Shown here in pieces: positions 1 to 29,384 of a stretch of DNA of 64,000 nt. The notes below the pieces were generated by a model. That model saw only the letters and a list, made by a program, of their open reading frames with translations. It was not told the origin of the DNA and ran no database searches. Origin of the DNA: Phocaeicola vulgatus ATCC 8482 (GTDB taxonomy: Bacteria; Bacteroidota; Bacteroidia; Bacteroidales; Bacteroidaceae); assembly GCF_000012825.1 (NCBI RefSeq), contig NC_009614.1, positions 2,728,001 through 2,792,000 of the forward strand, written 5' to 3'. The number at the start of each line of letters is the position of its first letter. Position 1 is the first letter of the stretch. The position numbers and the translations under genes were made by a program.

Positions 1-3000
1 CGTCCGTTACGCTGTTCCAGGTCGGACGGCCTTCAGGGTATGTCCAGATGATGGATGGCCACGGCACGTTCCTGCGCGTTGACTCCCGTTCCCAGTTTCT
101 GTGTGGACCCGAAAAGGAAACGGATGCGTCCGGAGTTCATATCCTTGAACAGTTCCTTGCGTGCGTTGTCGCTGTTTGCTTCCTGAATGAACTTTATCTG
201 CTTTTCCGGGATATTATGGTCTTCCACGAGCTTGCGCCTTATCTCGCTGTAAATGTTCCACTGGTCAGGCTTATAAGTACTAAGGTCTGAAAAGATGAAT
301 TGCGTTCCCTTTTGGTCGAGATATTTATAGTAATACTCCGCAATCTTGGCCGCGCAATGGGATGCCTTGTTACCCGGACTGTCACCATATTCAGGGTCTA
401 TCAGCCGCATGTCAAGCGACATCTTGTTCGAGTAGTTGGTGGCTATCAGCATCTGTGCCTTTTCCTCCGCTTCGGACAGAGGCTCCCTGTCTATGTAGGT
501 CGCATCCCCGGTTTCTGCGAACTTTATCAGTTTCTGGATGAAAATCTCCTGCTGGGAAGTGGGCGGTATGTGATACAGTTGCTCGTTGAGTTCCGGCCTG
601 TCAACCCCTACGTCCTCGGCTGTCTTGTAATCGGTTATCTCCGCATAGAAATTGGCGAGTTCCGGCACTTTGATAAAATAGCGGAAACGCTCTTTCTGCA
701 CGACCTGGTTGGTTACTGAAAATTCAAAGTCCGTGCTTTTCTTCGCATAGACGGCCGCCCAGCCGTCAAAGCAGGTAATGCCCTGCCGCTCCATTTCCTT
801 CGGACGGAGATATTTGAAAAGGAGATAGAGTTCGGTCAAACTGTTGGAAATGGTCGTACCGGACAAGAATGTGGCTCCCAAGTCCCTGCCCGTGCGTTCC
901 TGTATGGTACGGATGGCGAAGAGCATGTTCATGGCCTTCATGCTTCCTTCGGGATTGCCCATACCGGAAACCCTCGCATGGCGTGTGTTGAACATCAAGT
1001 TCTTGAAATTGTGTGATTCATCAACGAAGAGGTGGTCGATGCCCATTTGCCTGAAGTCGGTCACGTCATCCGTCCGGTCTTTTATATCCTGCTCCAGCTT
1101 TTCAAGTTTGGCCTCAAGGTTCTCCTTCCTTCTTTCCAGCCCCTTCTTTATCCAGCCGCTCACTTCATTGCCCTGCTGCTCGAATACGGCGAGATTCTCT
1201 TCGATACTGTCAATTTCCTGTGTATATATTTCCTGCTGTATTTCGGGAGACTGGGGTATTTTTCCAAACTGGTCGTGTGTCAGGATGATGCAGTCCCAGT
1301 TGTTGTTCTTGATGTCATGGAATATTCCGACACGCTTCTCCGGCGTAAAGTCCTCCTTACCCGGATACAGTACTCTGGCATTCGGATAGGCCCTCTTGAA
1401 CGTGTCGGCTATGTCATGCACATTGCTTTTGAGTCCGATAATCATCGGTTTGTTCGCCAGTCCGAGACGTTTCATCTCAAAGGCGGCCACACACATGATA
1501 AGGGTCTTGCCGGTTCCTACTTGATGGTCAATTATCCCGCCGCCGTTCATCTTCAGCATCCATACGGCATTTCTCTGGCTGTCGTACAAATTCGGTATCC
1601 CCAATCCTTTCAGGTCAAGGAACGGAAAACTTTGCAGGGAACCGTCATAATCGGGACGCACATAGCAGTTGAACTTGCGGTTGTACATGTCGGCAAGATT
1701 CTGCTTGAACTCGGGGAGCTGCTCGTTCAGCCAACCAGTGAAAGCCGACCGAATTTCATTGATTTTGGCATCGGCAAGCTGGATGGCCTCGGCATCCCGT
1801 ACCTTTATATCATTGCCTTCTTCATCCTGCACGGTTTTTGTTATGTCGGGCACCGTGTTATGCAGCGCATGTTTCAGCAGGTCGTTTCCGTAATAACCTC
1901 TTTTTTCCCCTTTCACATAATATCTGTCGGTGATGTTCGCGTTGGTACTCTCGAAGTTCACACTAAACTCGTCGATGGATTCCGTATAATGGATATGGGC
2001 CTTTGTCTCAAAGAGGTATCCGGCAAACTCTTCATATACGGACATGGGTATCCAGCGTTCCCCCAGATTGAAGTCAAGCAACTCGAAGCTGATCGGTTCC
2101 GGTATGGCTTTTCGCAAGGCTTCCAATGATTTTCTGCTTGCATCATCATCGGGATAGTCTTTCAGGTAGTTCTCTATCCATTCGGCTTTGGCTACCACAT
2201 TGCCTGCTATGAAACGGTCTTTGATTTCATAGTTCTTCATCATGGGATTGTAGAAGATACGGGTATCCAGTTGTTTGAGCAACTCCTGTATGTCAATTTC
2301 ACTGAGATTTTCCATATATTCCAGGTTGACCTCTCCGAACTTGTTCAGGGATGCCGCAAGCGCTTCCTGCGGTGTATCCACATGTTTCACTTCACTGGCG
2401 TTGAACGATACGGGAACAGAGAATATATCCGCCTTCTGTATCTTGCCGTTAACGGAACGCTCCAATGAGAGTATTTCCCGCCCTCCGGCATCCATCAGCA
2501 GGAATTTGGCGTTGTCCTTTCCGTTCAATTCCCTGAACATGCGGTAAAAACTGTCATACCGCTTGACCAGTTCTTCCCGCAGTTCCGGTTGTTCCGTTTC
2601 CGTTTCGGCTTCCGTATTGTAGAGGTCATGATAGGCTTCCCGGAGCGGGATGTAGTAGGCGGCCCGGTATTGCTGGGTGACTGTCAGTTTGAGCGGATGG
2701 AATTGTATATCGGGAGTGCCCATACCTCTTAAATACCCGTATTGCTCACCCGACTTCACGATGGAACCGTTCTTGTATTCGGGGCGTATCTCCCCGGTAA
2801 ACGGCCGTGGTTCCATTTCTTTCTTCCGCTCTTCTTCAAATTTTTGTCTGCGCTCCTGCCATTTTGCTTCCGCTGCCGCCCGTTCCCCGGTCATGTCTTC
2901 CTGCGTGGCGGCTTCATCATACATATTCTCTTGCGAGAACAGATTGAACATTTCCGGTTCATCCCCTTTCTTTTTGCGGGATGCTGACGGTACCCGGCTT

Positions 3001-4328
3001 GGGGAAGGCCTGCTTTCCACTGCTTGCACCTCCGCTTCCTCTTCGTCCGCATAGGCGGCAAACAGGTTGAGCATGGGTTCATAGGGTTGTGAGGGACTTT
3101 CTTCCCGCACCTCTTGCCGGTGGTTCTCAACCGCTATTTCCAATGGTGTTTCAAATTCCGGTTCAAGACCGGTAGAAACGGCTGGCCGGGATAGATTGGC
3201 ATCATAGAGTTCCCGGTTAAGATGGTTCTCCACATCTTGCGCCAATAATTGTCTGAGATGTCCAGCGATAGCTTCAATACCACCTGCATGAATAAAATTC
3301 ATGGCCGGTTGTCCGTACATGTTTTTTCCCATAGATACGGAAGTATGGACGATATGGTCCAAACCGGAGTAGCAGTTGTTGATATTGATGCCGCCGGATA
3401 CAAGACGGGTTTCAATAAAGTTCCGTTCCTTTTCGGTCAGTTCTGTTTTTTTTGTATTCTTCTGCAATACGATCAGGTCACTGCCCACTTCCGTACCCGC
3501 ATCAACAAAAAGGTTGTCCGGCAGACGGCTGGCGGAAACAAGATTGGCATGGTTCATCAGCCATTCCCTGACGGGACGGTTCTGTGGAGAGTCCATGACA
3601 CCCGAAGTCGTGATATAGGCCAGTATCCCGCCTTCGCGTAACGTGTCCATACCTTTGAGAAAGAAATAGTTGTGTACAGCAGCGAGTGAGGATTTACGCA
3701 CGGTGTCTTCGCTCCGGTCGAAGTTCCTGTCGTAAACTCTGGTATTTTCAAATGGGATATTGGAAGAAACCATATCGAAGTAACCGTTATAATAGGATTG
3801 TATGGACTGGAAACCGTCTATGGTCACTCTGCTTTTCGGATAGAGGGATGAGAGTATCTTTCCCGTGAGCTTGTCTTTCTCGAAACAATGAACTTCAGGA
3901 ATATCTTTCAACCGGCTGATAAACATGCCCGTTCCGGCGGAAGGGTCAAGGAAACGTCCCGGACGGATTTCCGGTACCTGCAAGGATTCCTGCATGGCCG
4001 CTACCAACGGTTCCGGTGTGTAAAAGGCTGTGAGAACGGAGCTTTTAAGGCTTTGGACGTATGCCTTGTATTCTTTCTCGTCTTTGGAATACTCCCGCAA
4101 CAGTTCATGCAACAGCCGGACTTGGGGAAACAGTTCCCTGTCTGTCGTTCATCTTTCAATGTCCGTGTCTTTCTCTGCCGGATTCAGAATGCACTTCAGC
4201 CCTCCAAAACCCGAATAACCATTTAATACTTTGCGTGCCTCTTCCGTGAGACAAAACTCCGGACGCATGAATATCCATTCAAGAGCGGCTATGTTGTCCG
4301 CCAGATGTTGTCGTTTGTTATATGCCAT
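1..4328 (-). CDS. N6-DNA methylase / SNF2 helicase fusion, partial, with two in-frame TGA (Trp) codons
   Basis: Large DNA-processing protein of Bacteroides conjugative elements; the 3' end lies beyond the window. The N-terminal part carries a methyltransferase-like SAM-binding motif ([11 protein letters not shown]) and a degenerate NPPF-type motif (SSNIPF). The C-terminal half is an SNF2/DEAD-like helicase with Walker A (DHQVGTGKT) and a DESH box. Translation from ATG at 4328 ([16 protein letters not shown]) meets TGA at 4149-4151 (codon 60) and again at 33-35 (codon 1432). Both flanks are fully colinear with the family. The second TGA sits in [19 protein letters not shown], where the family has an almost invariant Trp. 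About ten other Trp residues use TGG. The start overlaps the end of the DUF1896 gene by 11 bases, so the two are probably translationally coupled. The biochemical role in transfer or defence is not established; family assignment is secure. Confidence 0.85.
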
Positions 4329-8844: not shown

Positions 8845-10854
8845 TTACATTTCATTGTTCAATAAATATTTGAGTTCCGGGTCGTTCTCTATGCGGATCA
8901 GTTCGTTCTCCACCAATTCAACAATATCCTGTTTGATTTGCCGATAGTTGGCCTGTATCTGCTGCTCCATTGTATCGTTACCGTTCTCGTCCAGAAAACT
9001 GCTGATTTCGGGTATGGGCTGGTAGGCCGCCGTCTCTTTCTGTACGGCTTCATTGTCAACAACTATCTGCGCATGGAAAATTTTCTGTTCTATTGTCTCT
9101 CCGAAGTTGTCTGCTACGGCACCGACAAACATACCTTGCGAGAGTGTACTGATTTTGGATGCAGGTATCAGACTGTCCAGTTGCGTGTTGATGGAAGTGG
9201 ACGTATCGTTGCGGTTGATGCTCATGGACTCTCTTTTTTGCAGGATTTTCCCAAATCTTTCCGACAAGGTTTTGGCCGTTTCACCCACTACCTGACCGCT
9301 AAAAACATTGCCCACAGTTGACATAATTACGGCGGCCTCCTTGTCTCCGTAGTCGCGCTTTAACTGGCTGAAATCCTGAAAACCTAACACAACCGCGACC
9401 TTGTTGCTTCGTGCCGTGGCAATCAGATTATCCAGACCTTTAAAGAAGATGGTCGGTAACTCGTCAATAATCACACAACTTTTCAGTTGTTTCTTCTTAT
9501 TTATCAGCTTAACAATACGGGAGTTATAGAGTCCCAGTGCTGCTCCATAGATTGAAATTCTATCGGGATTGTTGCCCACACATAATACTTTCGGTTCTTT
9601 GGGATTATTAATATCCAACGTAAAATCACTGCCGGACATTACCCAATAGAGTTGCGGACTTATCAGTCTGGATAACGGGATTTTAGCGCTTGCAATCTGG
9701 CCCTGGAGCTGCTCACTCGCTCCGCCTTTCCATGCGTCAATGAACGGGCTGAGATAGTTCTCCAAATCGGGATAACTTGTCAGAATGGTAAAGACGTCTT
9801 CATACCTTTTATTAAGCAATTCAATAGCATGTGGGAACGTACAGAACTTGCCACCTTCATAGATTTTCAAAAACCATATTATCGCCGTAAACAAGACAAT
9901 CGGGGATTCCACGAAGAAGTCCCCCTGCTTTTGCACCCACGACTTATTGAGGTTGAGCATGATGGTGTACGACGATTCGTAAGCATCTGAAATATCCGTC
10001 ATCAGTTCCGGTGCCAATGGATTACAACGGTGGCTTTTCCTCGGATTATCGAAATTGATCACATAAAATTTAGGTGGAACCTTATAGCGGTATCTGTACT
10101 TGAGCAGATGGTTATAAGCGATAACCGACAGGTCATCAAACTTAAAATCATATATATAGAGCGCATAGGATTTCTCTATAGTCTGCTTTATAAACTGGTT
10201 GACAATGGCATAGGACTTCCCGCTGCCCGGTGTTCCCAATATCATTGTCGCTCGAAAAATATTAACAAGGTTGATAAATCCGTTGTAAGTCTTCCCTCTG
10301 TACCAGAATTTGGTCGGTAGATTGACGGAATATTCGTTTTCCATAAGGCGAGTTTCCTGCATGAACGATTCATTCTCAGTATTGAAAACGTCCTCCAGTA
10401 AATTGTTCTTCAACAGACGGCTTATCCACAATCCTGATGCCAACAGACTGAAAAAGCCGCCGACCAATGTCGTGGTATAAAGTATGGCGCATACACCGGA
10501 TGATGCGTCAATGGACAGCAACCACCAGTTCAGGAAAAAGAGTATGGCACCCGCTATGGCCGCAATAATTATTTTCCTTCATGTGATTTCATGCTTCTTC
10601 ACTCCCTTGTTGCCCATGCAGGACAGACCGAGGAAAAGGACACAAAACAGTTTTGTGTAAAGCAAAGATGAAAATAGTCCGGTGGTACGTTGGAAATTTG
10701 ATAGTATTTTATCCACTATGCCAAGCGTTCAGCCCATTTCATGCAGTCAGCCGTAACAAAACCAATAGATGTGTATCGCCAAAAATAAAAAACTGATGGC
10801 CCGCATAAAGTCTGTGACTTTGGCAAGACCTCTTAAATCATCTTCATTCTGCAT
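8845..10854 (-). CDS. mobC: Conjugal coupling protein MobC/VirD4-like, with three in-frame TGA codons
   Basis: Type IV coupling ATPase that delivers the relaxase-DNA complex to the transfer channel at the inner membrane. Read through TGA it has 669 residues, the family length. N-terminal membrane segments (around FLFLAIHIYWFCYG and AGAILFFLNWWLL) are followed by Walker A (GTPGSGKSY) and Walker B (SCVIIDELPTIFF) of the TraG/VirD4 family. TGA codons stand at 10747-10749 (codon 36), 10729-10731 (codon 42) and 10579-10581 (codon 92). The context of the last, HEIT-TGA-RK, matches a family position with Trp. Without readthrough only a 35-residue peptide is made, and the rest would need the internal TTG at 10521. 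Several other Trp codons are TGG. Stop is TAA. It follows mobB by 45 bases in a leftward mob operon. Confidence 0.88.
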
Positions 10855-10899: not shown

Positions 10900-12219
10900 T
10901 TATAGCCTACGCCTGCGCTTCTTCTTTTTCTTGCGTCCATAGCGGAAAGCCGGATCAATGTACTCGTGTGTATGGTCATCTTCCATAAGTACGGAGAAAA
11001 TGTCAACGGCACCGAGTGCGGATGTGTCAATCAGACTTTCGGAAGTTTCCGGCTGCCGGTGGTATTGTTGTTCCTGCCGTTCTTCAGTCTCTTTTCTTTC
11101 CTCCCGTTCCGTATCTCTGTCTTGCCGGGATACTTCCTGTCCGGTTGGTGGTATCAACCTCTCACGGTCTGCCTCCGGATTATTGAACAGTTCGTTGAAC
11201 ACATTGGCAGAAAAGGGTTTTCCCAAACGCGAGCCGTTGAACACTGTCCGACTGGTATGGTCTATGAAAGTGATGCCGTACAGGCGTCCTTCGGGATTGA
11301 TACGGTAAACCACTTCTATATCCGCCTCTTTCAGCCTGCGGGCAAAATCTTCTTTCGTGCCGATGTCCTGCATGGCTTTGGTGATTTCCTGCCTTGTCCT
11401 TTCTGGGAGGTTGTCCTTTTTCACCTTTTCAGCGGAAGCGGCAAACTTCTTTTGCAGTGCTTCATAACCGAATACCTTGCCGAACTTACTGGATTTGAAA
11501 GGTGTTCCCACCTGCTGTCCGTTATCATCCAAAGCTCCGTACATGATACCGTGGTATTCCTTTCCGTCCACACTTCCCCTTACCTCGTAAACAGTGATGT
11601 TATACAAATTCAGAAGGGTGTTGTATTCGCCAAGTGAATGACAGTTGTAACATTCCAGCAAGGTACGGGCGGTATGCTTTGCTTGCGCTTTCACGTCACC
11701 TTTCGGATAATCCACTTTTTGCAAGGCCAACAGTTCCCGCTCACCGTGTTCTCCGAGTGTGGGATGAAGCCCGTACTTCACTTCCATTTCACGACAGATG
11801 TTCTGTGCCCGGACGGCTTCCCGGTTGTGGTCTATCTTTTCTCCTTTCTCGTTGATGCGTACCGAAACGATGTGCACGTGTTTGCGGTCGATGTCTTCGT
11901 GCAGCCAAACTATATAGGGCTGGTTCCCGTAACCGAACTTTTCCATAAACTCCTGCGCCAGTATGGTCATCTGCTCTTCCGAAAGAATGTCCTTCGGGGA
12001 GGGATTCAATGAGATATGGATAACCGGTTTTCTGACGTGTGAATTGAGTGCAATGTAAGGTTCGAAAGCCTGCACGCAGTTTTCAATTGGAACATTCCCC
12101 GAAGTGTCAGCCGCAATTTTCGGATGTCACAATACCTTTGCCGTACCGTCATCCACCTTTATCTTATTGTAGGCAATCACTCCATAGAATGAACTGCCTG
12201 ATGTAATATTCGGCACCAT
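10900..12219 (-). CDS. mobB: Relaxase MobB, with one in-frame TGA codon
   Basis: Relaxase/mobilization nuclease family protein that would nick oriT and pilot the strand. Translated from ATG at 12219 (MVPNITSGSSFYGVIAYN) with TGA at 12127-12129 (codon 31) read as an amino acid, it gives 439 residues. Visible motifs are the N-terminal segment with conserved Asn, the HISLNPSPKD strand and the two-His metal site in WLHEDIDRKHVHIVSVRIN (histidines at HVH). The C-terminus is highly charged with a run of basic residues. Starting at the first ATG after the TGA would delete the N-terminal catalytic region. The gene starts four bases after the mobA stop and ends in TAA. Confidence 0.87.
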
Positions 12220-12223: not shown

Positions 12224-12658
12224 TTATTCCTTTTTAGTGAGATATTCCTTATCGAACCGCTTTGTCAGTTCGATAATCTGTTTGCAGAGTTCCTCCAGTT
12301 TGCGGGTTTCTTCAGCAAGTTTATAAAGAAACGCAAGCGATTTCTTTTCCCCGTAAATGGTATGGATGGTCTTTACACATTGGTTGTAGTTGTTTCCTAT
12401 CCTTCGGAACTGTTGATAGAAAGCAGTTAATTGGGCATAATACTCCTGCGCTTCCTTATCAATCTTCACTACCTTGAACTCTCAACCGAAGATGCGAGCA
12501 AAGATAAATTCAGCTTTGTTCTTCATGCCGGATTGTTCGAACATGGAGATAAACTTTTCGTCTTCCTCGTCATTTAGACAGAGGTAATAACGGTGCGTGC
12601 GTGGATCGGCCAGCACCTTGCGCCCTGCGGCGCCACGGATTCTTGTTTCATCTTTCAT
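12224..12658 (-). CDS. mobA: Mobilization accessory protein MobA, with one in-frame TGA codon
   Basis: MobA-type auxiliary protein of Bacteroides conjugative elements (144 residues with readthrough), thought to bind oriT and help the relaxase. The N-terminal half looks like a ribbon-helix-helix segment (YYLCLNDEEDEKFISMFEQSG, KAEFIFARIFG). TGA at 12482-12484 (codon 59) sits between ARIFG and EFKVVKID, and homologs run through this point without a gap. The C-terminal part is helical (NYNQCVKTIHTIYGEKKSLAFLYKL), as in the family. First gene of the leftward mobABC operon. Stop is TAA. Confidence 0.82.
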
Positions 12659-13406: not shown

Positions 13407-14177
13407 ATGGAAAAGAGAATGAAAACATTATTCGTTTCGTTCGCTACCCAGAAAGGTGGCGTGGGTAAATCAACATTCACCATTTATGCGGCATCGTGAC
13501 TGCATTATGTGAAAGGACTGAATGTAGCTGTGGTGGATTGTGACTATCCGCAGCACTCAATCATCAAACAGAAAAAGCGGGATATGGAAGTGGTGAAGAC
13601 CACACCCGTTTATCAGAACCTCTTGGTGGAGCAGACCGGGCGGTTGAAGAAAAAGGCTTATCCGGTCATTGGAAGTACCCCGCCGGATTGTATGACTGAC
13701 TGAAGGAGATTTGAAGGGAAATCGGACATACATTATGACATGGTACTGTTCGACCTGCCCGGAACTATGGGTAGCGACGGGGTTATCGCTGCAATTAGTG
13801 CGCTCGATTATCTGTTCGTGCCGATAAAGGCAGACCGTCTTGTGCTGGAAAGCACGCTGAACTTTGCCACCACCATTAATGACCGGCTGATAAAGACCGG
13901 CGTGTCCGCACTGAAAGGTCTTCATCTATTCTGGAACATGGTTGACCGCAGGGAACGCACGACATTGTATGATGTGTATCAGCAAGGTTTTTCCCTGTTA
14001 GGGCTGGATTGTCTCAAAACACGTATTCCCGTGCGCAGTAACTTTACCAAGGACTTGTCCGCTATGGGCGGCCCCGTTTACCGGAGTACGCTGTTCTCTC
14101 CCGATGCGGCATTCACCAAAGAGTGCGGCTTCGATACGTTTATGGATGAAATCATATCTGTACTTAAAACCGAATAG
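13407..14177 (+). CDS. traA: ParA-family ATPase TraA, with two in-frame TGA codons
   Basis: First gene of the transfer operon, a ParA/MinD-type ATPase. The deviant Walker A is TQKGGVGKST near residue 13, the switch is VDCDYPQHS, and the later motif is LFDLPGTMGS. TGA codons stand at 13497-13499 (codon 31, AAS-TGA-LHY) and 13701-13703 (codon 99, DCMTD-TGA-RRFEGK). The reading frame and family alignment continue on both sides, giving 256 residues. A conventional reading would leave only fragments lacking either the P-loop or the rest. Stop TAG. Two bases separate it from the DUF3408 gene, and the AGCTA repeats lie upstream. Confidence 0.85.
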
Positions 14178-15838: not shown

Positions 15839-15973
15839 ATGGCTATGACAAAAGGCTATTACGATTCGGGATGACAGACCGCCTGCGGCATTCACCCGGT
15901 AAGGCAACAAGAACTATTCACCATTAAATTTTATCCGTATGAATATAGGACTGGTAGATGTGGACGGACATAA
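15839..15973 (+). CDS. Short peptide P3, YYDSG-UGA-QTACG
   Basis: MAMTKGYYDSG (ATG at 15839, or 15845 for the inner Met), TGA at 15872-15874, then QTACGIHPV and further codons. With readthrough, translation would run to TAA at 15971-15973, out of frame across the start of the radical SAM gene at 15939, so readthrough could affect its initiation. The residues after the TGA resemble those of P1 (QPVS) and P4 (FTSC). Without readthrough it is an 11-residue peptide. Confidence 0.5.
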
Positions 15974-16844
15974 CTTCCCCAATTTTGCGCTGATGCGCCT
16001 TTCAGCTTATTACAAGGCAAAAGGGCATCGGGTGGAATGGGCAGAACCGACGGGACGGTATGATAAGGTGCTGGCAAGCAAAGTGTTCACTTTTAGTTCT
16101 GACTATGATTACAATCTGCTGGATGCGAAGGAAATCATAAAGGGCGGAACGGGATATGATATTGCCGGCAGGCTTCCCGAAGCTGTGGAAAACAGCCGGA
16201 TGATGGATTATTCCATTTACCCCCAATATCCTTTTTCCCTTCAGTTCTTTTCAAGGGGCTGCATCCGTAAATGCCCCTTCTGTCTCGTCCGTGGGAAGGA
16301 AGGATACATTCAGGCCGTGGAGCCGGTGGAGCTGAACCCGAAAGGGAAATGGATTGAGGTGCTGGATAACAATTTCTTTGCCAATCCGCAGTGAAGATCG
16401 GCGGTAGATTATTTGATGAAGGCCCGGCAACCCGTTAAACTGCACGGTGTGGATGTGAGGATTATGAATGAGGAACAGGCCTGGCATCTAAACCGGATGA
16501 AGATGAAGCAGAACATCCATATTGCGTGGGATTTGCCCCGGCTGGATCTGACCGACCGCCTGAAAGAGATGGTCAGGCATGTGAAACCTTACAAGATAAC
16601 CTGCTACGTGCTGATAGGATTCAATTCGACCGTTGAGCAGGATTTGTTCAGGTTGAACGTACTGAGGGAACTGGGGATTACTCCCTTTGTTATCCCTTTC
16701 CGGGATTATGCAAACAAGCGGACGCCTACGCAATACGAGCGTGACCTTGCCCGATGGGCGAACCGGATGTGGCTATTCAAGTCTACCTCCTTTGAAGACT
16801 ATACACCCCGCAAGGGTTTCAAGTGCGGGGAATATCTGAAATAA
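15939..16844 (+). CDS. Radical SAM protein with cobalamin-binding-like N-terminus, one in-frame TGA codon
   Basis: Protein of 301 residues when TGA at 16392-16394 (codon 152) is read. The N-terminal region (GLVDVDGHNFPNFALMRLSAYYKAKGH) resembles small radical SAM proteins carried by phages and conjugative elements. The cluster-binding motif is GCIRKCPFC (CxxxCxxC), close to residue 108-115. The TGA lies in NNFFANPQ-TGA-RSAVDYLMKA, where I expect Trp from the family pattern (NPxW). Both halves are needed for the barrel. Substrate unknown. Its position between short peptides of conserved sequence invites a peptide-modifying role, but the family is also seen without such peptides. Stop TAA. Confidence 0.75.
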
Positions 16845-16873: not shown

Positions 16874-17029
16874 ATGAGAACAAACGGTTATTACGATTCG
16901 GGATGATTCACATCCTGCTTTCAAGAGAGAATTAACAAGAATGTTTCACCACCAAATCAAGTGACAATGCAAATAGCATATTATGACTCCGGCTGATTTC
17001 CGGCCGGAACTTACCCCCTGAATCAGTAA
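16874..17029 (+). CDS. Tandem short peptides P4 and P5, both YYDSG-UGA
   Basis: P4 starts at 16874 (MRTNGYYDSG, TGA at 16904-16906, then FTSCFQERIN). P5 starts at 16967 in the same frame (MQIAYYDSG, TGA at 16994-16996, then FPAGTYPLNQ) and ends with TAA at 17027-17029. Reading both TGA codons gives one 51-residue product holding two YYDSG motifs. Each TGA is followed by local complementarity (GGATG/CATCC at P4; CCGGC/GCCGG at P5). The terminal TAA is only 10 bases from the stem of the terminator ahead of traE, the spacing expected of an attenuation leader. Confidence 0.58.
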
Positions 17030-19868: not shown

Positions 19869-20189
19869 ATGGCTGATTTTGAAATAAATAAAGGGGTGGG
19901 CCGTGAAGTTGAGTTCAAGGGACTCCGGGCACAGTACCTGTTTATTTTCGCCACCGGACTGCTTGCCGTATTCGTGATGTTCGTCATCATGTATATGGCG
20001 GGTGTCGGACAGTGAATCTGCATCGGTTTCGGAGTATCGGCGGCTACGGTACTGGTATGGCTGACCTTTACGCTGAACCGTAAATACGGCAGCCACGGAC
20101 TGATGAAGCTGTTCGCGGCCCGGCAACATCCCCGGAGAATCCTCTCACGAAAACGTATCACACGTCTGATCAACAAACAACAATCGTAA
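19869..20189 (+). CDS. traF: TraF (DUF4133), with one in-frame TGA codon
   Basis: Protein of 106 residues when the TGA at 20013-20015 (codon 49) is read. It begins MADFEINKGVGREVEFKGL and has two membrane segments flanking the TGA: LFIFATGLLAVFVMFVIMYM before, and ICIGFGVSAATVLVWLTF after. The site is VGQ-TGA-ICIGFG, where DUF4133 relatives have Trp. TraF probably corresponds to the VirB3 component of the transfer channel. The other Trp (VLVWL) uses TGG. Stop TAA, three bases before traG. Confidence 0.86.
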
Positions 20190-20192: not shown

Positions 20193-22217
20193 ATGAGAAG
20201 TATATTAAAAGCATCCACACTAGAAAGCAAGTTTCCCATCATGGCGGTGGAACACGGCTGCATCGTCAGCAAGGACGCCGACATCACGGTCGCTTTCCGG
20301 GTCACACTGCCGGAAGTATTTTCGGTATCATCCGCAGAATATGAGGCGATGCACGCCACATGAGCGAAGGCAATCAAGGTGTTGCCGAACTATTCAATCC
20401 TGCACAAACAGGATATTTTCATCACGGAGAAATACGAGCCGGACATTCGCCGGGACGAACTCAGCTTTCTCTCCCGCAGTTTTGAACGCCACTTCAACGA
20501 ACGTCCCTACCTGCACCACGCCTGCTACCTGTTCCTCACCAAGACCACCAAAGAGCGCTCCCGGCAGCAAAGCAACTGGAACACGCTTTGCCGTGGTTTT
20601 CTGGTGCCGAAGGAAATCAGGGACAAGGAAATGGTGGAACGCTTCATGGAAGCGGTGGGACAGTTTGAAAGTATCGTTAACGACAGCGGACTTGTCAGGC
20701 TGGAACGGCTGACCACGGAAGAGATTACGGGAACGGAGAACGAACCGGGTATTATCGAACGGTACCTTACGCTCTCGGCCGACGGAACGAGCATGTTGCA
20801 GGACATGCAATTGAATCCGGACGAAATGCGTATCGGTGACAAGCGGCTCTGCCTGCATACACTTTCCGACCTCGATGACCTGCCGGGAAAGGTAAGGACG
20901 GACGGGCGATACGAACGCCTCTCGACAGACCGTTCGGACTGCCGTTTGAGTTATGCCGCCCCCGTGGGCGTAATGCTGCCCTGCGACCATATCTACAACC
21001 AGTGGATATTCATAGATGACAGCAACGAAAACCTTTCCCGTTTCGAGAAGATGGCGAAGAACATGCAGTCGCTTTCCCGGTACAGCCGCAGCAACCAGAT
21101 CAACAAGGAGTGGCTGGATGAATACCTGAATGAGGCGCATAGCAACGGACTGCAATCCGTGCGCTGCCATTGTAACATCATCGCATGGGCGGAAAACGGG
21201 GACGAACTCCGGCGGGTGAAGAACGATGTGGGAAGCGCACTGGCATTGATGGAATGTACTCCGCACCATAACACGACCGACCTTCCGGCTCTCTATTGGG
21301 CGGGCATACCGGGAAATGAAGCGGACTTTCCGGCCGAAGAGACGTTCTACACGTTTACCGGGCAGGCGCTCTGTTTCTTCACGGCTGAAACCTGTTACCG
21401 GAACTCGCTCTCTCCCTTCGGCATCCGCATGGTGGACAGGCTGACGGGAAAGCCCGTCTTCCTCGACATATCGGATTTGCCCATGAAAAAAGGGGTGGTG
21501 ACTAACAGAAACAAATTCATACTCGGCCCCAGCGGCAGCGGGAAAAGTTTCTTTACCAATCATCTCGTGAGGCAGTACTGGGAACAAGGGACGCATATCC
21601 TGCTGGTGGACACCGGAAATTCATACAAGGGACTCTGTGACCTGATACATCAGAAGACCGGAGGGGACGACGGGATTTATTTTACATACAAGGAAAATGA
21701 TCCGATTTCTTTCAATCCGTTTTTCACGGAGGATTACCGGTATGACATCGAGAAGCGGGACAGCATCAAGACACTGATACTCACCCTTTGGAAAAGGGAG
21801 GACGAACCGCCCCGACGTTCGGAAGAGGTGGCGCTCTCGAATGCGGTCAGCCTGTATATCGAAAAGATAAAGAAGAACCGGAAGATAAAGCCGAACTTCA
21901 ACTCGTTCTATGACTTTGTAAGGAAGGACTACCGCAAGATACTGGCAGACAAGAACGTGCGGGAGAAGGACTTTGATGTGGACGGTTTTCTGAACGTGCT
22001 GGAACCTTATTATAAGAACGGTGAATACGGGTATCTGCTGAACTCGGACAAGGAACTGGATTTACTGAACAAACGGTTTATTGTATTTGAGTTGGATGTT
22101 GTGAAGGATAATCCAATCCTCTTTCCGGTTGTCACCATCATTATCATGGAGACGTTTATAAATAAAATGAGACGTTTGCAAGGTATCCGCAAGATGATAC
22201 TGATTGAGGAAGCTTGG
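20193..22217 (+). CDS. traG: TraG (VirB4-type ATPase), exon 1, with one in-frame TGA codon
   Basis: Conjugation ATPase that energises the type IV secretion channel. ATG at 20193 gives MRSILKASTLESKFPIMAVE, and TGA at 20361-20363 (codon 57) lies in EYEAMHAT-TGA-AKAIKVLP, a Trp position in relatives. Walker A is FILGPSGSGKSFFTNH and Walker B is RKMILIEEAW. The reading frame is interrupted right after Walker B by a group II intron. Exon 1 plus exon 2 (24619-25098) give 834 residues, the family length. Nine other Trp residues over the two exons use TGG. The exact splice point may differ by two bases (see intron 2). Confidence 0.9.
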
Positions 22218-24618
22218 CTGTGACATGTAAGTCTTGTATATGATTGTTCAACTTTCATTCCACGAGTTGGAAATAGAACGATTGAACCTGTTGTTCCGTC
22301 AACAGTAGCCTATGGGAACGTGCGGTATTAAGCAATGACCCCGTGCGGTAACAGAACCAACAATGAAGCCCTTCCGAAAGGAGAAGTCTGAACCGTGAGG
22401 GAATGACAACTGCTGTTAGTATCGAATGGCAGGGGAGCTAGGCTGAATGGTATGAATAACGTAATGTGAACCGTTGATAAACGTCGTAACTTCGAATGAG
22501 CTACTAATGATACTAGGCTCTAACCCAAAAGGGATGCAGTCGGATAACCTTCTCCATGCTAAGGTTACACGGACATAACGACTGCCGGCGGATAGACGGA
22601 TTCTAACCCATTCGTTTGTCATATACAAGAAACATGGTAAACCCGTACTTCTCCTGTGTAACAGCAGGTAAGCAGACCGTAAGTGAAGCCGAATGGAGTG
22701 CGGGCAGAGGAATGCGGAGAAAGCGAATGCCGTTCTGTAATGGGACGGATAGAGGTTGAAACATCACCTCACACGAAAGTGGGCAGACTTCCGCATGGTG
22801 GATGTTTTACAAGAAACTTATAGAACTTATTAAAGGAGAAAAGCAAATGAACGAAATTAAAACATCGTGTGCATCTACTGACCGGAAATGGAACACTTGG
22901 GAAAGCATAGACTGGAACAAGTGTGAGATAGCGGTTAATAAGCTACAAGCACGTATTGTAAAAGCTCAAAAGGCGGGCAAACACGGCAGGGTGAAATCCT
23001 TGCAGTGGGTGCTGACGCATTCGTTTTACGCTAAGGCTTTAGCCGTAAAGCGTGTTACATCAAACAGTGGCAGTGACACCGCAGGTGTTGACAAGGTGAA
23101 ATGGTCAACTCCCAATGCCAGATTCAAGGCTATCGGTGAACTGAAAAGAAGAGGCTACAAGCCCCAGCCGTTAAAAAGGGTCAATATCAAAAAGAGTAAT
23201 GGGAAACTACGTCCTTTAGGTATCCCGACAATGAAAGATAGGGCTATGCAGGCATTATATCTGCTTGCGTTGGAACCTGTATCGGAAACAACTGCGGACA
23301 GTAATTCCTACGGTTTCCGTAAAGAAAGAAGCACTAGAGATGCAAGGGAACAATGTTTTTGTGTCCTTGCAAAGAAAGCTTCTCCCGAATGGATTATGGA
23401 GGGTGACATCAAAGGTTGTTTCGACCACATCAGCCATGAATGGCTGCTGAACAATATCCCTATGGATAAAGTGATGCTGCGAAAATGGCTCAAATGCGGT
23501 TTCGTCTTCAACAAGGAGCTATTCCCTACGGAAGAGGGTACTCCACAGGGCGGTATCATTTCACCAACTCTTGCGAATATGACACTGGACGGACTGCAAA
23601 CTATGCTTGCAGAGAAGTATCACAAGAAATTTGTAAACAGGAAAACGACCTACTATCCCAAAGTACATCTTGTACGCTATGCGGATGATTTTATCATCAC
23701 GGGTAGAAGCAAGGAAGCTTTGGAAGAAATCAAACCGTTAGTAGTGGACTTTCTCAAAGAAAGGGGATTAACCCTGTCGGAAGAGAAAACAAAGATTACA
23801 CACATTGATGACGGATTTGATTTTCTTGGGTACAATATCCGAAAATACAAAGGAGTGCTTCTAATCAAACCGTCCAAAAAGAGCCTGAAGAAATTCATGC
23901 AGAAAATCCGGGGAATCATTGATTCCAATAAAGGAAGCAAACAGGAATCACTTATAAGGCTCTTGAATCCTGTGATAACAGGCTGGGTAAACTACTATAA
24001 GAATTGTGTGGCTTCTGACACATTCAGAAAAGCTGACTACCTGATATTTGAAAAGTTATGGCAATGGGCTAAGAGACGACACCCCAAGAAAGGCAAATAT
24101 TGGATTGCCGACCGATACTTTACACGGGTAAAAAACCGTAACTGGTGCTTCGTGGCAAACTTCAAGAAAGGCAAGACTGATGACAGGATTGCACTGAAAA
24201 GGCTGTATGACACAAAGATTACCCGATATGTCAAGGTAAAAGGTGAAGCAAATCCCTTTGACCCCGAATGGACAGAATATTTTGAAAAGCGCAAGACTTA
24301 CAAGATGTTACAGTCGCTCAACGGTAGAAAATCGTTGCTGTACATGTGGGAAAGACAGAACCATTTATGTCCCGTATGTGGTAAACCCATAGACAAGGAA
24401 CATCCTTGGGGAACTTCCCAACAAATAGTCAACGGCAAGAAAGTAAATTTTCTGCTGCATGACAGTTGTAGAAGAAAAGTCATTCAAACTAATAAGATGT
24501 AACTATGAGCTGGTTTCTATTAAATAGAAATTTAACACTGCTTGAGCCGTATGATTGGAAACTTTCATGTACGGTTCTGAGGGGGGAAAGGGGCAGTAAT
24601 GCCCCTGACCTACCCGGC
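22218..24618 (+). mobile_element. Group II intron 2, inserted in traG
   Basis: Related to intron 1 but clearly diverged. Domain V is at 24544-24579 (GAGCCGTATG ... TGTACGGTTC), domain VI follows (GGGGC-agtaat-GCCCC), and the 3' end aligns with that of intron 1 (CCTACCCGGC). The 3' exon AAGGCAATCGCC restores the expected K-A-I-A after TraG Walker B. At the 5' side, a join after TGG (22217) keeps the family sequence EEAWKAIAK but makes the intron begin CTGTGAC. A canonical GTG start at 22220 with 3' exon from 24618 would insert one Leu. Both keep the frame. Confidence 0.88.
22847..24502 (+). CDS. ltrA: Group II intron 2 reverse transcriptase/maturase with HNH domain
   Basis: Intron-encoded protein of 551 residues from ATG 22847, which has GGAG nine bases upstream; an upstream in-frame ATG at 22802 is less likely. 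Reverse transcriptase motifs (RPLGIPTMKDRAMQALY, GDIKGCFDHISH, EGTPQGGIISP, LVRYADDF), domain X (NPVITGWVNYYK) and an HNH zinc motif (LCPVCGKPIDKEHPW ... LLHDSCRRK) are intact. It is similar to the intron 1 protein along its length. Stop TAA. Presumably splices its host intron and supports retrohoming. Confidence 0.93.
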   Translation: MNEIKTSCASTDRKWNTWESIDWNKCEIAVNKLQARIVKAQKAGKHGRVKSLQWVLTHSFYAKALAVKRVTSNSGSDTAGVDKVKWSTPNARFKAIGELKRRGYKPQPLKRVNIKKSNGKLRPLGIPTMKDRAMQALYLLALEPVSETTADSNSYGFRKERSTRDAREQCFCVLAKKASPEWIMEGDIKGCFDHISHEWLLNNIPMDKVMLRKWLKCGFVFNKELFPTEEGTPQGGIISPTLANMTLDGLQTMLAEKYHKKFVNRKTTYYPKVHLVRYADDFIITGRSKEALEEIKPLVVDFLKERGLTLSEEKTKITHIDDGFDFLGYNIRKYKGVLLIKPSKKSLKKFMQKIRGIIDSNKGSKQESLIRLLNPVITGWVNYYKNCVASDTFRKADYLIFEKLWQWAKRRHPKKGKYWIADRYFTRVKNRNWCFVANFKKGKTDDRIALKRLYDTKITRYVKVKGEANPFDPEWTEYFEKRKTYKMLQSLNGRKSLLYMWERQNHLCPVCGKPIDKEHPWGTSQQIVNGKKVNFLLHDSCRRKVIQTNKM

Positions 24619-25098
24619 AAGGCAATCGCCAAGGAAGGTATGGCAAACTACATCCGTTATCTTTTTAAAACAGTCAGAAAGTTTTACGGAGAGGCGGTTG
24701 TAGTGACGCAGGAAGTGGATGATATTATCTCTTCCCCCGTTGTGAAAGAGACGATTATCAACAACAGTGACTGCAAAATACTGCTCGATCAGCGGAAGTA
24801 TCAGAACAAGTTCGACCAGATACAGAACCTGCTCGGCCTGACGGACAAGGAACGCAGCCAGATACTTTCTATCAATCTTGCCAATGCAGCGAACCGCCTT
24901 TATAAAGAGGTCTGGATTGGGCTTGGCGGTACGCAAAGTGCGGTATATGCGACAGAAGTTTCGGCTGAAGAGTACCTTTGCTACACCACCGAAGAGACTG
25001 AGAAACTGGAACTTACCCACCTTACGGAAAAGCTGGGCGGAAACATCGAGCTGGCTATCAAACAACTTGCCGAAAGCAAACGGCAGGAAAACAAGTAA
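24619..25098 (+). CDS. traG: TraG (VirB4-type ATPase), exon 2
   Basis: C-terminal 159 residues of TraG: KAIAKEGMANYIRYLFKTVR, VVVTQEVDDII, SDCKILLDQRKYQNKF and the conserved VWIGLGGTQSAVY. No plausible start of its own at the junction. It needs splicing of intron 2. Ends in TAA. The part contains no TGA in frame. Confidence 0.88.
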   Translation, partial: KAIAKEGMANYIRYLFKTVRKFYGEAVVVTQEVDDIISSPVVKETIINNSDCKILLDQRKYQNKFDQIQNLLGLTDKERSQILSINLANAANRLYKEVWIGLGGTQSAVYATEVSAEEYLCYTTEETEKLELTHLTEKLGGNIELAIKQLAESKRQENK

Positions 25099-25120: not shown

Positions 25121-25528
25121 ATGAGTAAGAAAGATTTATTAAGCCAATGCAGGGAAGCACTCGGAGATGCGACCCTGACCAATCTGGATCTGCTGAACCT
25201 GATCGGAGAAATGAAGAAGGAACTGGAACACGACCGCATCTGCGGTCACTGAATGAACAAGGAAGGCGGCTCCACGCTGACAATCCGTAAATCCAACCAT
25301 GTGACGGACGGATTCAAGGGATACAAGGCTACGCTGTTCGCCGGAGAAATGAGTTATACCGAAATCAATATCCCGCTTCGGAAAGGGGACGACCTTTTCC
25401 TGCACGGGAACAAGGATGCCGGATGTATCGGGTATTTCAGCGGAAGCGAGGTATTGCTGTTCGGCTGTTACGGACTGTTTGCCCGTGATGACGACAGCCG
25501 GTATTTACTTACCAAAGAAAGGAGATAG
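25121..25528 (+). CDS. DUF3876 conjugation protein, with one in-frame TGA codon
   Basis: Protein of 135 residues with readthrough of TGA at 25250-25252 (codon 44). The N-terminal part is helical (MSKKDLLSQCREALGDATLT). The beta-rich domain starts at RICGH-TGA-MNKEGGSTLTIRK, matching the DUF3876 pattern GxW-n near its first strand. It lies between traG and traI as in related elements. An ATG directly after the TGA (25253) could start a shorter protein, so residual expression without readthrough is possible. Function unknown. Stop TAG. Confidence 0.75.
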
Positions 25529-25532
25529 ACGC

Positions 25533-26162
25533 ATGAAAAAGAGACTACTAATTCTATTCATGGCAATGCTGTCCCTTTCGGTAACAAGCAAAGCACAATG
25601 GGCAGTGATAGACCCTACGAACCTTGCTCAAGGCATTGTAAACTCGGCCAATGAAATTGTACAGACTTCCACAACGGCACAGAACATGTGAAGTAACTTT
25701 CAGGAGACTGTAAAGATTTACCAGCAGGGAAAGGCCTACTACGATGCTTTGAAATCCGTACACGATCTCGTAAAAGGGGCACGCAAGGTACAACAGACTA
25801 TCCTTCTGGTAGGTGACATCAGCGATATTTACGTGACCAATTTCAATACGATGATGGGCGACCCGAATTTTACCGTGGAAGAACTCTCGGCCATTGCTTT
25901 CGGGTATAACCGGTTGCTTGAAGAAAGCAGCAACCTGCTGCTGGACTTGAAGGAAGTGACCACGGCTACCGGACTCTCGATGACCGACAAGGAACGGCTG
26001 GACATCATCAACCGGATATATGGCGAAGTGCTGGAATACAAGAACCTGACATGGTACTATACCCGAAAGAATATCGGCATATCGTACCTGCGCAGCAAGA
26101 AGAAGGGGGATTCCCGGCGGGTGCTTGCCCTGTACGGGACACACGACCAGCGTTACTGGTAA
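25533..26162 (+). CDS. traI: TraI (DUF4141), with one in-frame TGA codon
   Basis: Periplasmic VirB5-like candidate of 209 residues. A signal peptide (MKKRLLILFMAMLSLSVTSKA) is followed by helical sequence (DPTNLAQGIVNSANEIVQTS) and TGA at 25689-25691 (codon 53, TTAQNM-TGA-SNFQETVKIY), then the conserved KAYYDALKSVHDLV segment. The frame is open on both sides and the family runs through. TGG is used for Trp at QWAVIDP and at the end (RYW). Stop TAA. Confidence 0.85.
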
Positions 26163-27228: not shown

Positions 27229-27852
27229 ATGGAATTTAAATCATTAAAAAACATCGAGACATCGTTCCGGCAGCTACGGCTGTTCGGAATGGTATTCCTG
27301 GGAGTATGCGCACTGGTAACGGTCTTCGCTACCTGAAAGGCATACGAGTTCGCCGAGGCGCAGCGGCAGAAAATTTATGTGTTGGACAGCGGAAAGTCAC
27401 TGATGCTGGCACTCTCGCAGGATGTGCAGCAGAATCGCCCCGTGGAAGCGAGGGAACATATCAGACGTTTCCACGAACTGTTCTTCTCCTTGTCACCGGA
27501 CAAGAGCGCCATTGAAAGCAACATCCAGCGTGCCCTTTACCTCTCGGATGAAAGTGCCATCGGTTACTACCGGAACTTGCAGGAGAAAGGCTACTTCAAC
27601 CGGATGATAGCGGGAAACATCTCGCAGACGCTGACGGTGGACAGCATACAGGGGAACTTCAACAGTTATCCATACGAGATGAAGACCTATAGCCGGCAGC
27701 ACATCATCCGTTCGAGCAGCGTTACCGAAAGGTCGCTTGTCACCACCTGCCGTCTGAGGAATGTAACCCGGAGCGACAACAATCCGCAGGGCTTTCTGAT
27801 AGAGAGTTTTACCATCATCGAAAACAGGGACATCGGACAGTATGAAAGATAA
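27229..27852 (+). CDS. traK: TraK, with one in-frame TGA codon
   Basis: VirB8-like protein of 207 residues, the usual TraK length, when TGA at 27334-27336 (codon 36) is read. It starts MEFKSLKNIETSFRQLRLF; the single membrane segment (MVFLGVCALVTVFAT) runs straight into the TGA, followed by KAYEFAEAQRQKIYVLDSGKS as in the family. Without readthrough only the anchor would be made. Ends in TAA and overlaps traL by 11 bases. Confidence 0.87.
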
Positions 27853-28132
27853 CGGTATAAAAAAGGTCTTCCACTCGTTCAGAACGGAGAAAGACCGACA
27901 TACAGCAAAACTCCGCAGGCGGTGGCAACGGCTGAGCTACCGGCAGCAAAGGATGATCATCCTTTACCTGCTCGGACTCTTCGCCGCCATCGATCTTGCC
28001 TACATCGTGGGCGGTTTCTGCGGGACAGACAAATTTCCGATTGAGGTACAGCATCTCCAAAGGATTGCGCTTCCCCAAACGGGCAGTATCCAACCATTAA
28101 AAAACAATGTATCCAATGACACAATCCGATAA
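27842..28132 (+). CDS. traL: TraL (DUF3989-type), small membrane protein
   Basis: Protein of 96 residues with a basic N-terminus (LRRRWQRLSYRQQRM) and one membrane segment (IILYLLGLFAAIDLAYIVG). It lies between traK and traM and overlaps both, as in CTnDOT-like operons. No TGA in frame; stop TAA. Confidence 0.8.
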   Translation: MKDNGIKKVFHSFRTEKDRHTAKLRRRWQRLSYRQQRMIILYLLGLFAAIDLAYIVGGFCGTDKFPIEVQHLQRIALPQTGSIQPLKNNVSNDTIR

Positions 28133-29384
28133 GAAAGAAGAAAAGAATAAAAAAATGCAGAAAGCGGAACCTGCATCCGAAAAGGAGAAGAAGTTAAACC
28201 GCAAGGTTACCGACAAGCTGAAATTCTATGGCGTAGTGACATTCCTTTCCCTGCTTTGCGCCGGGTTCATCTGGTTTATCTTCAAACCGGACGCACCCGA
28301 AACGGTGGAAGGGACGGCAGGCATCAATACGACGATACCCGACGCTATCGCACCGGAGACAATGGCCGACAAACAGAAGGCTTACGAACTGGAAGAGATG
28401 AAGAAACGCAGGCAAGAAAAAGTGAGAACCTTGCAGGATGTGGCCGGGGGCTACCTAATGCCGGACACAACGGACGGGCTGAAACCGGAAGAAGATGTAC
28501 CGAAAGCGGATGCTATCCGGGAGTCCAGAGAAAAACAGCGGCAGATTTCAAGGCAGATCACCTCGTTCTATCAGGAACCGAAGGAGAGTCCGAGGGTGGA
28601 CGAACTGGAACGGCAGGTGAAGGAGCTTAACGAAAAGCTGGAACATGAACGGAAAGGACAAGACCCGCTGGAACTGATGGAAAAGTCGTATGAGATGGCG
28701 GCACGCTATTTCCCCGGACAGATGGGCGGACAGGTGAAAAACATACAGCCTGCGGGCGTTACGGGCGGTTCATCCGGTAATCCTGCCGCCATAGCTGCCG
28801 GACGTGCTACGGAGAATGTGGTTTCGTCACTGGCCGTACCTCCGGTCCCCGACACGATACCCCGCAATTACGGTTTTGCCACTGCCGTGGGCGGCGGACA
28901 GCTTGCCGGAGCCAATACGATACGTGCCTGCGTGGCTGAAGACCAGACAGTGACCACCGGAGCATGACTGAAGTTCCGGTTGCTGGAACCGCTGCAAGTG
29001 GGCGGTGTGCTTGTACCTGCCAATACTCCGCTATATGGTACGGTGCGTATCGAAGGGCAACGGATGGCAGTCACAGTAAACTCCATAGAGAGTGGCGGCA
29101 ATATCCTGCCGGTGGAACTAACGGCTTACGATATGGACGGGCAGGCCGGACTTTTTGTTCCGAATACCGCAGAACGTACCGCCATGAAAGAAGCCGCCGC
29201 CAATATCGGAGGCAGTTTCGGAACAAGCATCTCGTTCGCACGCAGTGCCTCGCAACAACTCGTCATGGACGTGACAAGGGGCGTGCTTGGCGGCGGATCA
29301 CAATATCTGGCCACAAAGATGCGTGAGGTGAAGGTGGCCGTGAAAGCTAATTATCAACTTTTATTAATATCCAAAAAGCAGTAA
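28116..29384 (+). CDS. traM: TraM, with one in-frame TGA codon
   Basis: VirB10-like protein of 422 residues from ATG 28116 (an in-frame ATG at 28107 adds three residues). Basic cytoplasmic start, one membrane segment (FYGVVTFLSLLCAGFIWFIF), long charged linker, then the conserved C-terminal domain. TGA at 28965-28967 (codon 284) stands in DQTVTTGA-TGA-LKFRLLEPLQVGG, inside this domain. The remainder (VRIEGQRMAVTVNSIE and SASQQLVMDVTRGVLGGGSQY) is intact. Stopping at the TGA would remove the channel-forming part. Stop TAA. Confidence 0.86.

What the first reader, a model, noticed from the sequence alone, without database searches (positions are those of the whole stretch)
1..29384. UGA appears to be a sense codon for tryptophan throughout the conjugation genes
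Twelve genes hold 16 in-frame TGA codons: helicase 4149 and 33; mobA 12482; mobB 12127; mobC 10747, 10729, 10579; traA 13497, 13701; radical SAM 16392; traF 20013; traG 20361; DUF3876 25250; traI 25689; traK 27334; traM 28965. In each gene, sequence before and after the TGA is intact and in the same frame. No TAG, TAA or frameshift lesion is seen. Several sites are family Trp positions, most clearly HLDIP-TGA-RPSDLEQ in the helicase, KHEIT-TGA-RK in mobC, HAT-TGA-AKAIKVLP in traG and VGQ-TGA-ICIG in traF. TGG is also used, so both codons mean Trp. A transfer module partly written in another code inside a standard-code host would restrict expression to cells, or conditions, that can read UGA. 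I know of no described case in Bacteroides conjugative elements.
Basis: partly seen in the sequence, partly recalled or inferred. Interest (0 to 1): 0.96.

Follow-up and report, generated by a model that had tools for sequence, protein, structure and literature searches.

The report
UGA recoded inside conjugation genes
In a family of mobile DNA elements of gut Bacteroides and Phocaeicola, the DNA-transfer genes hold the stop codon UGA inside conserved reading frames, where it is likely read as tryptophan although other genes of the same element and host use UGA as a stop, so one codon would carry two meanings in one cell and could work as a switch on DNA transfer.

Summary
In detail: 16 in-frame TGAs in 12 genes, with no TAA, TAG or frameshift. 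They are not decay. Six named relatives (traG 91-99% identical; Phocaeicola sartorii and five Bacteroides) and an eighth, unnamed element share most sites; 73 of 74 more distant relatives have none. Sequence after the first TGA is under strong purifying selection (dN/dS 0.05-0.09). Eight of 16 sites are Trp columns in outside homologues; own TGAs that differ in the six relatives are TGG in 10 of 13 cases. These genes avoid TGA as terminator (1 of 90 against 102 of 672), yet six other genes of the element end in TGA, as do tra genes of two other conjugative elements in the genome: UGA has two meanings. No UCA tRNA was found; both tRNA-Trp genes are CCA. A clade-specific array of mini-ORFs, M..GY[YF]D[ST]G, ends in UGA in 31 of 31 matched copies, and a scan for it led to the eighth element. 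My reading: conditional UGA=Trp confined to the transfer module. The decoding mechanism is unproven; mini-ORFs acting on RF2 is the boldest idea left open.

The parts
1..4328 (-). N-6 methylase/helicase gene (runs on to window -1071, stop TAA); sense TGAs at 4149-4151 (codon 60) and 33-35 (codon 1432)
   Evidence: both TGAs kept in 5 of 5 other copies; Trp in outside helicases 1/1 and 4/4
8845..10854 (-). mobC (TraG/TraD-like coupling protein); sense TGAs at 10747, 10729, 10579 (codons 36, 42, 92)
10900..12219 (-). mobB relaxase; sense TGA at 12127 (codon 31); codon 105 is TGG here and TGA in P. sartorii
12224..12658 (-). mobA; sense TGA at 12482 (codon 59)
13407..14177 (+). traA (ParA-like); sense TGAs at 13497 and 13701 (codons 31, 99)
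15633..15662 (+). mini-ORF 1, MTRGYFDTG-TGA
15729..15758 (+). mini-ORF 2, MYMTYFDSG-TGA
15839..15874 (+). mini-ORF 3, MAMTKGYYDSG-TGA
15939..16844 (+). radical SAM protein (phrog_9298); sense TGA at 16392 (codon 152)
   Evidence: Trp in 120 of the 120 best homologues
16874..16906 (+). mini-ORF 4, MRTNGYYDSG-TGA
16967..16996 (+). mini-ORF 5, MQIAYYDSG-TGA
19869..20189 (+). traF; sense TGA at 20013 (codon 49)
20193..25098 (+). traG in two exons (20193 to about 22217, 24619-25098) around a group II intron; sense TGA at 20361 (codon 57)
   Evidence: Trp in 74 of 74 outside relatives
25121..25528 (+). DUF3876-type gene; sense TGA at 25250 (codon 44)
25536..26162 (+). traI; sense TGA at 25689 (codon 52 of the frame as counted here)
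27229..27852 (+). traK; sense TGA at 27334 (codon 36)
28107..29384 (+). traM; sense TGA at 28965 (codon 287)
33665..35599 (-). parB-like gene that ends in TGA, here and in five other copies: UGA as stop in the same element
36281..37294 (-). unknown gene ending in TGA (TGA in four of five other copies, TAA in B. timonensis)
37327..37938 (-). unknown gene ending in TGA

Best explanation
In this family of Bacteroidaceae integrative conjugative elements the helicase, mobilisation and transfer genes hold UGA inside conserved open frames, where it is likely read as tryptophan by the host's ordinary tRNA-Trp(CCA), while UGA ends other genes of the same element and of the same genome. Shown: the frames, their conservation in other species, Trp columns at half of the sites, TGG/TGA exchange, avoidance of TGA as terminator in the module, and its use as terminator outside it. 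Inferred: that the residue is Trp at every site; that decoding is by tRNA-Trp(CCA) in competition with RF2, helped by an A after UGA; and that the reading is conditional, so that UGAs lying early in many transfer genes would keep the module silent until UGA is read well. Predicted and untested: the clade-specific mini-ORFs M..GY[YF]D[ST]G-UGA in the tra operon are part of that control, for instance by holding RF2 at their UGA when the operon is on.
For: 16 TGAs in 12 genes. Six named relatives carry 12, 13, 7, 10, 10 and 4 in-frame TGAs in the aligned genes; 73 of 74 other relatives carry none and one carries one; own and the six form one clade in a traG tree (SH-aLRT 100, quick method). Own TGA against the six: 53 TGA, 10 TGG, 3 other; own TGG against the six: 229 TGG, 2 TGA, 10 other. 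Outside columns: traG57 Trp 74/74, rSAM152 120/120 of the best 120, mobC92 34/36, traK36 50/64, traF49 49/72, helicase1432 4/4, helicase60 1/1, DUF3876-44 1/1. dN/dS after the first TGA 0.05-0.09 at dS 0.34-0.79. Terminators: TGA 1 of 90 in the clade, apparently a traK alignment that ends early, against 102 of 672 outside, p=2.4e-5. Two other conjugative elements in the same genome: 0 in-frame TGA against 34 and 28 TGG, and TGA terminators at 3 and 6 genes. Six accessory or cargo genes of this element end in TGA. No UCA tRNA found; two identical tRNA-Trp(CCA) genes in the host and two CCA genes in each of six relatives' hosts. Base after UGA: A at 10 of 16 sense sites, against 18 of 61 TGG sites (p=0.02) and 1 of 11 own stop UGAs (p=0.008).
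Against: No expression, proteome or transfer data. Five of 16 sites (mobB31, mobA59, traA31, traA99, traM287) have no Trp evidence. TGG to TGA changes are rare (2 of 231 comparisons), so UGA is not freely interchangeable; TGA sites are kept about as well as other A-ending codons, so selection to keep UGA as such is not shown. How an ordinary tRNA-Trp(CCA) with a 5-bp anticodon stem could read three UGAs in mobC well is unexplained. The parB stop UGA is followed by A, like many sense UGAs. Two relatives' copies are damaged or broken up in assembly: the B. xylanisolvens XB1A helicase and traC and several genes of the P. sartorii draft. The mini-ORF link is correlation only. The helicase, mobA, mobB and mobC lie on the other strand, outside the tra operon.
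Confidence: 0.74

Rival explanations
1. Plain leakiness: tRNA-Trp(CCA) always reads some UGA in Bacteroidaceae, transfer proteins are needed in small amounts, and the UGAs are simply tolerated dampers with no switch.
For: No dedicated factor was found; TGG to TGA gains are rare, as if UGA were costly; most sense UGAs are followed by A.
Against: mobC has three UGAs and helicase and traA two each, so low reading would multiply to almost nothing; strict avoidance of TGA as terminator in these genes suggests that UGA is read well there; 73 of 74 relatives, and two in the same genome, never do this.
Confidence: 0.25
2. A suppressor tRNA or an edited or modified tRNA-Trp that I could not see reads UGA, as in recoded phages.
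For: This is the usual way for recoded phages (passages). The session's tools do not see RNA editing or modification. A loose scan found one weak UCA-like structure, in the B. faecalis locus L051 only.
Against: No tRNA in the own element by ARAGORN, Rfam at a loose threshold or a loose scan; of 82 tRNA matches in the complete genome, the 69 read include no UCA anticodon, and the pattern GGTCTTCAAAACC is absent. Genes of two other conjugative elements there end in TGA.
Confidence: 0.15
3. The genes are decaying, through a mutation bias that turns TGG into TGA.
For: By genetics alone, UGA is a stop in this host; XB1A and P. sartorii copies show some other damage.
Against: dN/dS 0.05-0.09 after the first TGA; the same sites in eight elements; 72 TGA against 1 TAG and no TAA; half of the sites are not TGG in outside relatives.
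Confidence: 0.02
4. The mini-ORFs have nothing to do with decoding: they are a leader-peptide attenuator of the tra operon or substrates of the radical SAM enzyme between them.
For: Three lie before and two after the radical SAM gene; short UGA-ended leader peptides that stall ribosomes are known (TnaC, search listing).
Against: The radical SAM family is widespread without them: none next to it in 19 viral loci; P. sartorii keeps four mini-ORFs where the radical SAM gene is missing; every copy ends in UGA although the module otherwise avoids UGA as stop.
Confidence: 0.5

Closest known systems
UGA-to-Trp recoded gut phages (crAss-like and others, translation table 4)
   Same: Mobile DNA in the gut read with UGA as Trp; structural and lysis genes carry many of the sites in such phages (passages of PMC12386605 and PMC10746230).
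   Different: This is a conjugative element; I found no suppressor tRNA in it and saw no TrpRS or release factor among the proteins scanned; other modules keep UGA as stop. In one survey 11 of 73 table-4 phages carried the UCA suppressor, so lack of it is not unique (PMC11210395 passage).
[quoted passage not shown]
   Same: Shows that a CCA anticodon can read UGA (PMC13092985, abstract and passages).
   Different: The tRNA-Trp genes here have a 5-bp stem, and the host uses UGA as stop.
CTnDOT-type conjugative transposons of Bacteroidetes
   Same: Relaxase, MobA, coupling protein and tra genes of this type (gene order recalled).
   Different: 73 of 74 relatives compared here have no in-frame TGA.
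TnaC-type leader peptides that block release at UGA
   Same: A short conserved peptide ends at UGA (PMC8429421, search listing and start of abstract only; block of RF2 recalled).
   Different: No sequence likeness was tested; shorter, in several tandem copies, and no effect on RF2 shown.

Membership tests
UGA=Trp recoding (table 4 type) | In-frame UGA at conserved Trp columns | tested here: met
   8 of 16 sites
UGA=Trp recoding (table 4 type) | UGA avoided as terminator | tested here: met
   In the transfer module only: 1 of 90 against 102 of 672 outside
UGA=Trp recoding (table 4 type) | UGA is sense throughout the genome or element | tested here: not met
   6 of 18 other genes of the element examined end in TGA; so it is not filed as code 4
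UGA=Trp recoding (table 4 type) | tRNA-Trp(UCA) | tested here: not met
   69 of 82 genomic tRNA matches read
UGA=Trp recoding (table 4 type) | Trp in the protein at the UGA | not testable with these tools
   needs mass spectrometry
Recoded phages of standard-code hosts | Phage structural genes | tested here: not met
   The genes that hold TGA are conjugation, mobilisation, helicase and radical SAM genes
CTnDOT-type conjugative element | Relaxase and MobA | tested here: met
   Pfam Relaxase 89.5 bits; NCBIfam Bacteroid_MobA 173 bits, cut-off 150
CTnDOT-type conjugative element | TraG, TraJ, TraN, TraO | tested here: met
CTnDOT-type conjugative element | Tyrosine integrase at one end and defined att sites | tested here: inconclusive
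   Integrase beside a tRNA-Ser; no repeat of the tRNA end found in the window
UGA decoding by 4-bp-stem tRNA-Trp(CCA) | 4-bp anticodon stem | tested here: not met
   5-bp stem in the host genes and in those of six relatives' hosts

The most novel reading that the evidence does not exclude
The tra operon carries its own switch for the genetic code: tandem mini-ORFs ending GY[YF]D[ST]G-UGA trap RF2 on ribosomes when the operon is transcribed, so that ordinary tRNA-Trp(CCA) then reads UGA as tryptophan and the whole transfer module, written with early UGAs, is translated only then: a code change made by a nascent peptide, with no new tRNA.
Probability: 0.18. Interest if true: 0.98.

Novelty: new variant of a known kind. 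Interest (0 to 1): 0.9.

Why it matters
UGA-to-Trp reading is known for whole genomes and for phages, most often with a suppressor tRNA. Here it is confined to one set of genes of an integrated element, in a genome and an element that otherwise use UGA as stop, and without a tRNA of its own that I could find. If true, one codon has two meanings in one cell, conjugation has a translational gate, and genes of this kind that annotation may call broken are intact. Eight elements, several in named culture-collection strains, make it testable. That no such conjugative element is in print rests only on searches (820 papers matched, 12 listed) and 96 of an open-access library.

Tried and rejected
Decay by biased mutation: rejected on dN/dS and shared sites.

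Suppressor tRNA on the element: ARAGORN on the window, L008 and the clade loci, Rfam with a loose threshold and an own loose scan gave none in the own element; the scan gave one weak structure, in B. faecalis locus L051 only. Host: two identical tRNA-Trp(CCA) genes. Three odd tRNA-like genes (L135, L166) show no UCA in the loop by eye. The pattern GGTCTTCAAAACC is absent from the own genome; 35 of 399 family genomes have it and were not followed up. Only two genes of the RF-1 family were found.

Radical SAM gene as decoding factor: unlikely, as the family is common in gut phages, plasmids and metagenomes (5105 homologues) and is missing from this region in P. sartorii.

Mini-ORFs as read-through peptides YYDSGW: set aside, because an indel follows the TGA of mini-ORF 1 in B. 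faecalis and the frame beyond mini-ORF 4 changes there mostly at first and second codon positions, by eye. One B. timonensis copy (the fourth) does not match the motif from an ATG and is left out of the 31.

The claim that UGA marks the first Trp codon of a gene: 7 of 18 genes, p=0.04 on free shuffling but p=0.36 within genes; the early position of UGA holds better (median codon 54.5 against 190; within-gene p=0.03). Split radical SAM gene of a B. fragilis plasmid: a frameshift, not recoding. Plasmid and phage collections: no close copy; distant traG matches 38, none above 80% identity. One search (traJ in viral contigs) found nothing and (CTTCAAA) was uninformative. The six single viral hits of the mini-ORF motif look like chance by my own estimate. 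In one search my coordinates for the two HTH genes were wrong; one search replaces them. In one search the helicase and traI frames were mis-set; one search replaces them.


Full report
Setting. The window is bases 2,728,001-2,792,000 of a single-contig genome of 5.16 Mb. Its genus holds a genome with the P. sartorii contig, so it is probably a Phocaeicola (inferred). The element starts beside a tRNA-Ser and an integrase about 17 kb left of the window and is shared with P. sartorii up to window 37,919. Its right end was not defined: no repeat of the tRNA end was found in the window. It carries a CTnDOT-type helicase, mob and tra set, Avs-like anti-phage cargo below the model cut-offs and a ParB-like module.

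Observation. The 16 TGAs are real and in frame in the 12 named genes; each gene then runs to TAA or TAG. There are 61 TGG beside them.

Relatives. A scan of one genome for each of 84,980 species gave 128 relatives of TraG, of which the best 80 were kept. Six are close (91-99%): P. sartorii, B. xylanisolvens XB1A, B. timonensis, B. propionicigenes, B. faecalis and B. nordii. They hold 12, 13, 7, 10, 10 and 4 in-frame TGAs in 18, 19, 14, 17, 19 and 12 aligned genes; one of XB1A's, in traC, is at a Met column, and XB1A has one TAG. Of the other 74, 73 hold none and one holds a single TGA, at a Leu column of traF; ten of the 74 hold one to three in-frame TAA or TAG. Own and the six form one clade on a long stem in a traG tree (quick method). 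The two helicase TGAs are kept in 5 of 5 other copies.

Which residue. Against the six named relatives, own TGAs are TGA 53 times, TGG 10 times and something else three times (ATT, CGT, TTG); own TGGs are TGG 229 times, TGA twice and something else 10 times. Outside the clade the column is Trp for traG57 (74/74), radical SAM 152 (120/120 of the best 120 of 5105 homologues, found with a query read as Trp there), mobC92 (34/36), traK36 (50/64), traF49 (49/72), helicase1432 (4/4), helicase60 (1/1) and DUF3876-44 (1/1). The other eight columns are never Trp outside. Three of these (mobC36, mobC42, traI52) alternate with TGG inside the clade; five (mobB31, mobA59, traA31, traA99, traM287) have no Trp evidence.

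Not decay. Codons beyond the first TGA show dN/dS 0.049-0.094 at dS 0.34-0.79 between own and the six relatives; codons before it 0.09-0.15, and TGA-free genes 0.10-0.23. XB1A has a TAG and gaps in its helicase, and the P. sartorii draft gives several truncated alignments, so single copies may be damaged; the family is not.

Two meanings. In the transfer genes of the six relatives, terminators are 74 TAA, 15 TAG and 1 TGA (apparently P. sartorii traK, whose alignment ends early), against 102 TGA of 672 outside; own has 0 of 19. In the same element an HTH gene, parB, two unknown genes and two cargo genes end in TGA, 6 of 18 examined; parB does so in all five other copies found. Two other conjugative elements of the same genome have no in-frame TGA (34 and 28 TGG) and end three and six tra or mob genes in TGA. 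So this host does not seem to read every UGA as sense, and the module does not treat these UGAs as stops.

Decoding. No tRNA lies in the element apart from the tRNA-Ser at its end. The host has two identical tRNA-Trp(CCA) genes with 5-bp stems; six relatives' hosts also have two each, all CCA, 11 of these 12 identical to own. Of 82 tRNA matches in the genome (150 of 288 candidates scored) 69 were read; the 13 left out have the scores of the Ile/Ala pair and the tRNA-Ser that were read. A 13-base pattern for a UCA version of tRNA-Trp is absent from the genome. Two release-factor-family genes were found. Sense UGAs are followed by A in 10 of 16 cases, TGG in 18 of 61 (p=0.02), own stop UGAs in 1 of 11 (p=0.008); samples are small and parB's stop is followed by A. 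That a following A favours reading of UGA by tRNA-Trp is recalled, from no call. UGAs lie early in genes (median codon 54.5 against 190 for TGG, p=0.001; within-gene p=0.03) and in 12 of 18 Trp-holding genes (9.3 expected, p=0.05). TGG to TGA changes are rarer than other G to A third-position changes, while TGA to TGG is in or near the usual range. This fits UGA being an old but costly Trp codon.

Mini-ORFs. Between traC and traE lie five short frames, M..GY[YF]D[ST]G, each ending in TGA. In the seven elements in which the region was read, all 31 copies that match the motif end in TGA, followed by T (21) or C (10), never A (the motif allowed TGA, TAA, TAG or TGG). The frame beyond is not conserved as protein, so they end there. 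No such copy followed by TGA is in the 74 outside loci or in 19 viral loci with the radical SAM gene. A motif scan of 399 family genomes gave six with a match; the three with two or more are recoded elements, one of them found only this way, and the three single hits have no match to the transfer genes within the 18 kb read around each. Conserved UGA-ended peptides inside a module that otherwise avoids UGA as stop, tied to the recoded clade, are my best lead for control of UGA reading. TnaC is the precedent I have in mind (search listing; its action on RF2 recalled). This is untested.

Literature. Searches showed no conjugative element with in-frame UGA; one search matched 820 papers of which 12 were listed, and the library is open-access only. 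Recoded phages are the nearest kind (passages of PMC11210395, PMC12386605 and PMC10746230). The main phage paper (Borges 2022) is not held and is known to me only by recall and citation.

Verdict. UGA as a sense codon in this module: about 0.95. As Trp: about 0.9. By the host's ordinary tRNA-Trp: about 0.6. Conditional through the mini-ORFs: about 0.2. These are my judgements.

Noticed in passing
window 17315-19742 and about 22218-24618: Two group II introns with maturases interrupt traE and traG; the P. sartorii copy lacks both, and G318 has a 2.4-kb gap between the traG exon matches.
   Followed up: partly
L008:4307-9686: Avs1a-like and Avs2-like anti-phage genes beside the integrase as cargo, below the NCBIfam cut-offs.
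   Followed up: no
window 15939-16844: Radical SAM protein of phrog_9298: 5105 homologues in metagenomes, with relatives in phages and plasmids; function unknown.
   Followed up: partly
L135:202-275 and L135:1603-1672 (G000:C1:3633854 and 3635252): Two tRNA-like genes with shortened anticodon loops; ARAGORN gave one a two-base anticodon and did not list the other.
   Followed up: no
L166:53-147 (G000:C1:3958542): A 95-base tRNA match with an insert, not listed by ARAGORN.
   Followed up: no
window 6310-7248 and 7610-8713: A second, short integrase-like gene and an FRG-domain gene between DUF3945 and mobC.
   Followed up: no
L186:12001-12914 (B. fragilis pBFO17_1): Radical SAM homologue split by a frameshift.
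   Followed up: yes
window 14678-15610 and 17117-17314: traC begins MNIQSGYYEAG and traE holds TGYFDPG, which look like the mini-ORF motif GYYDSG.
   Followed up: no
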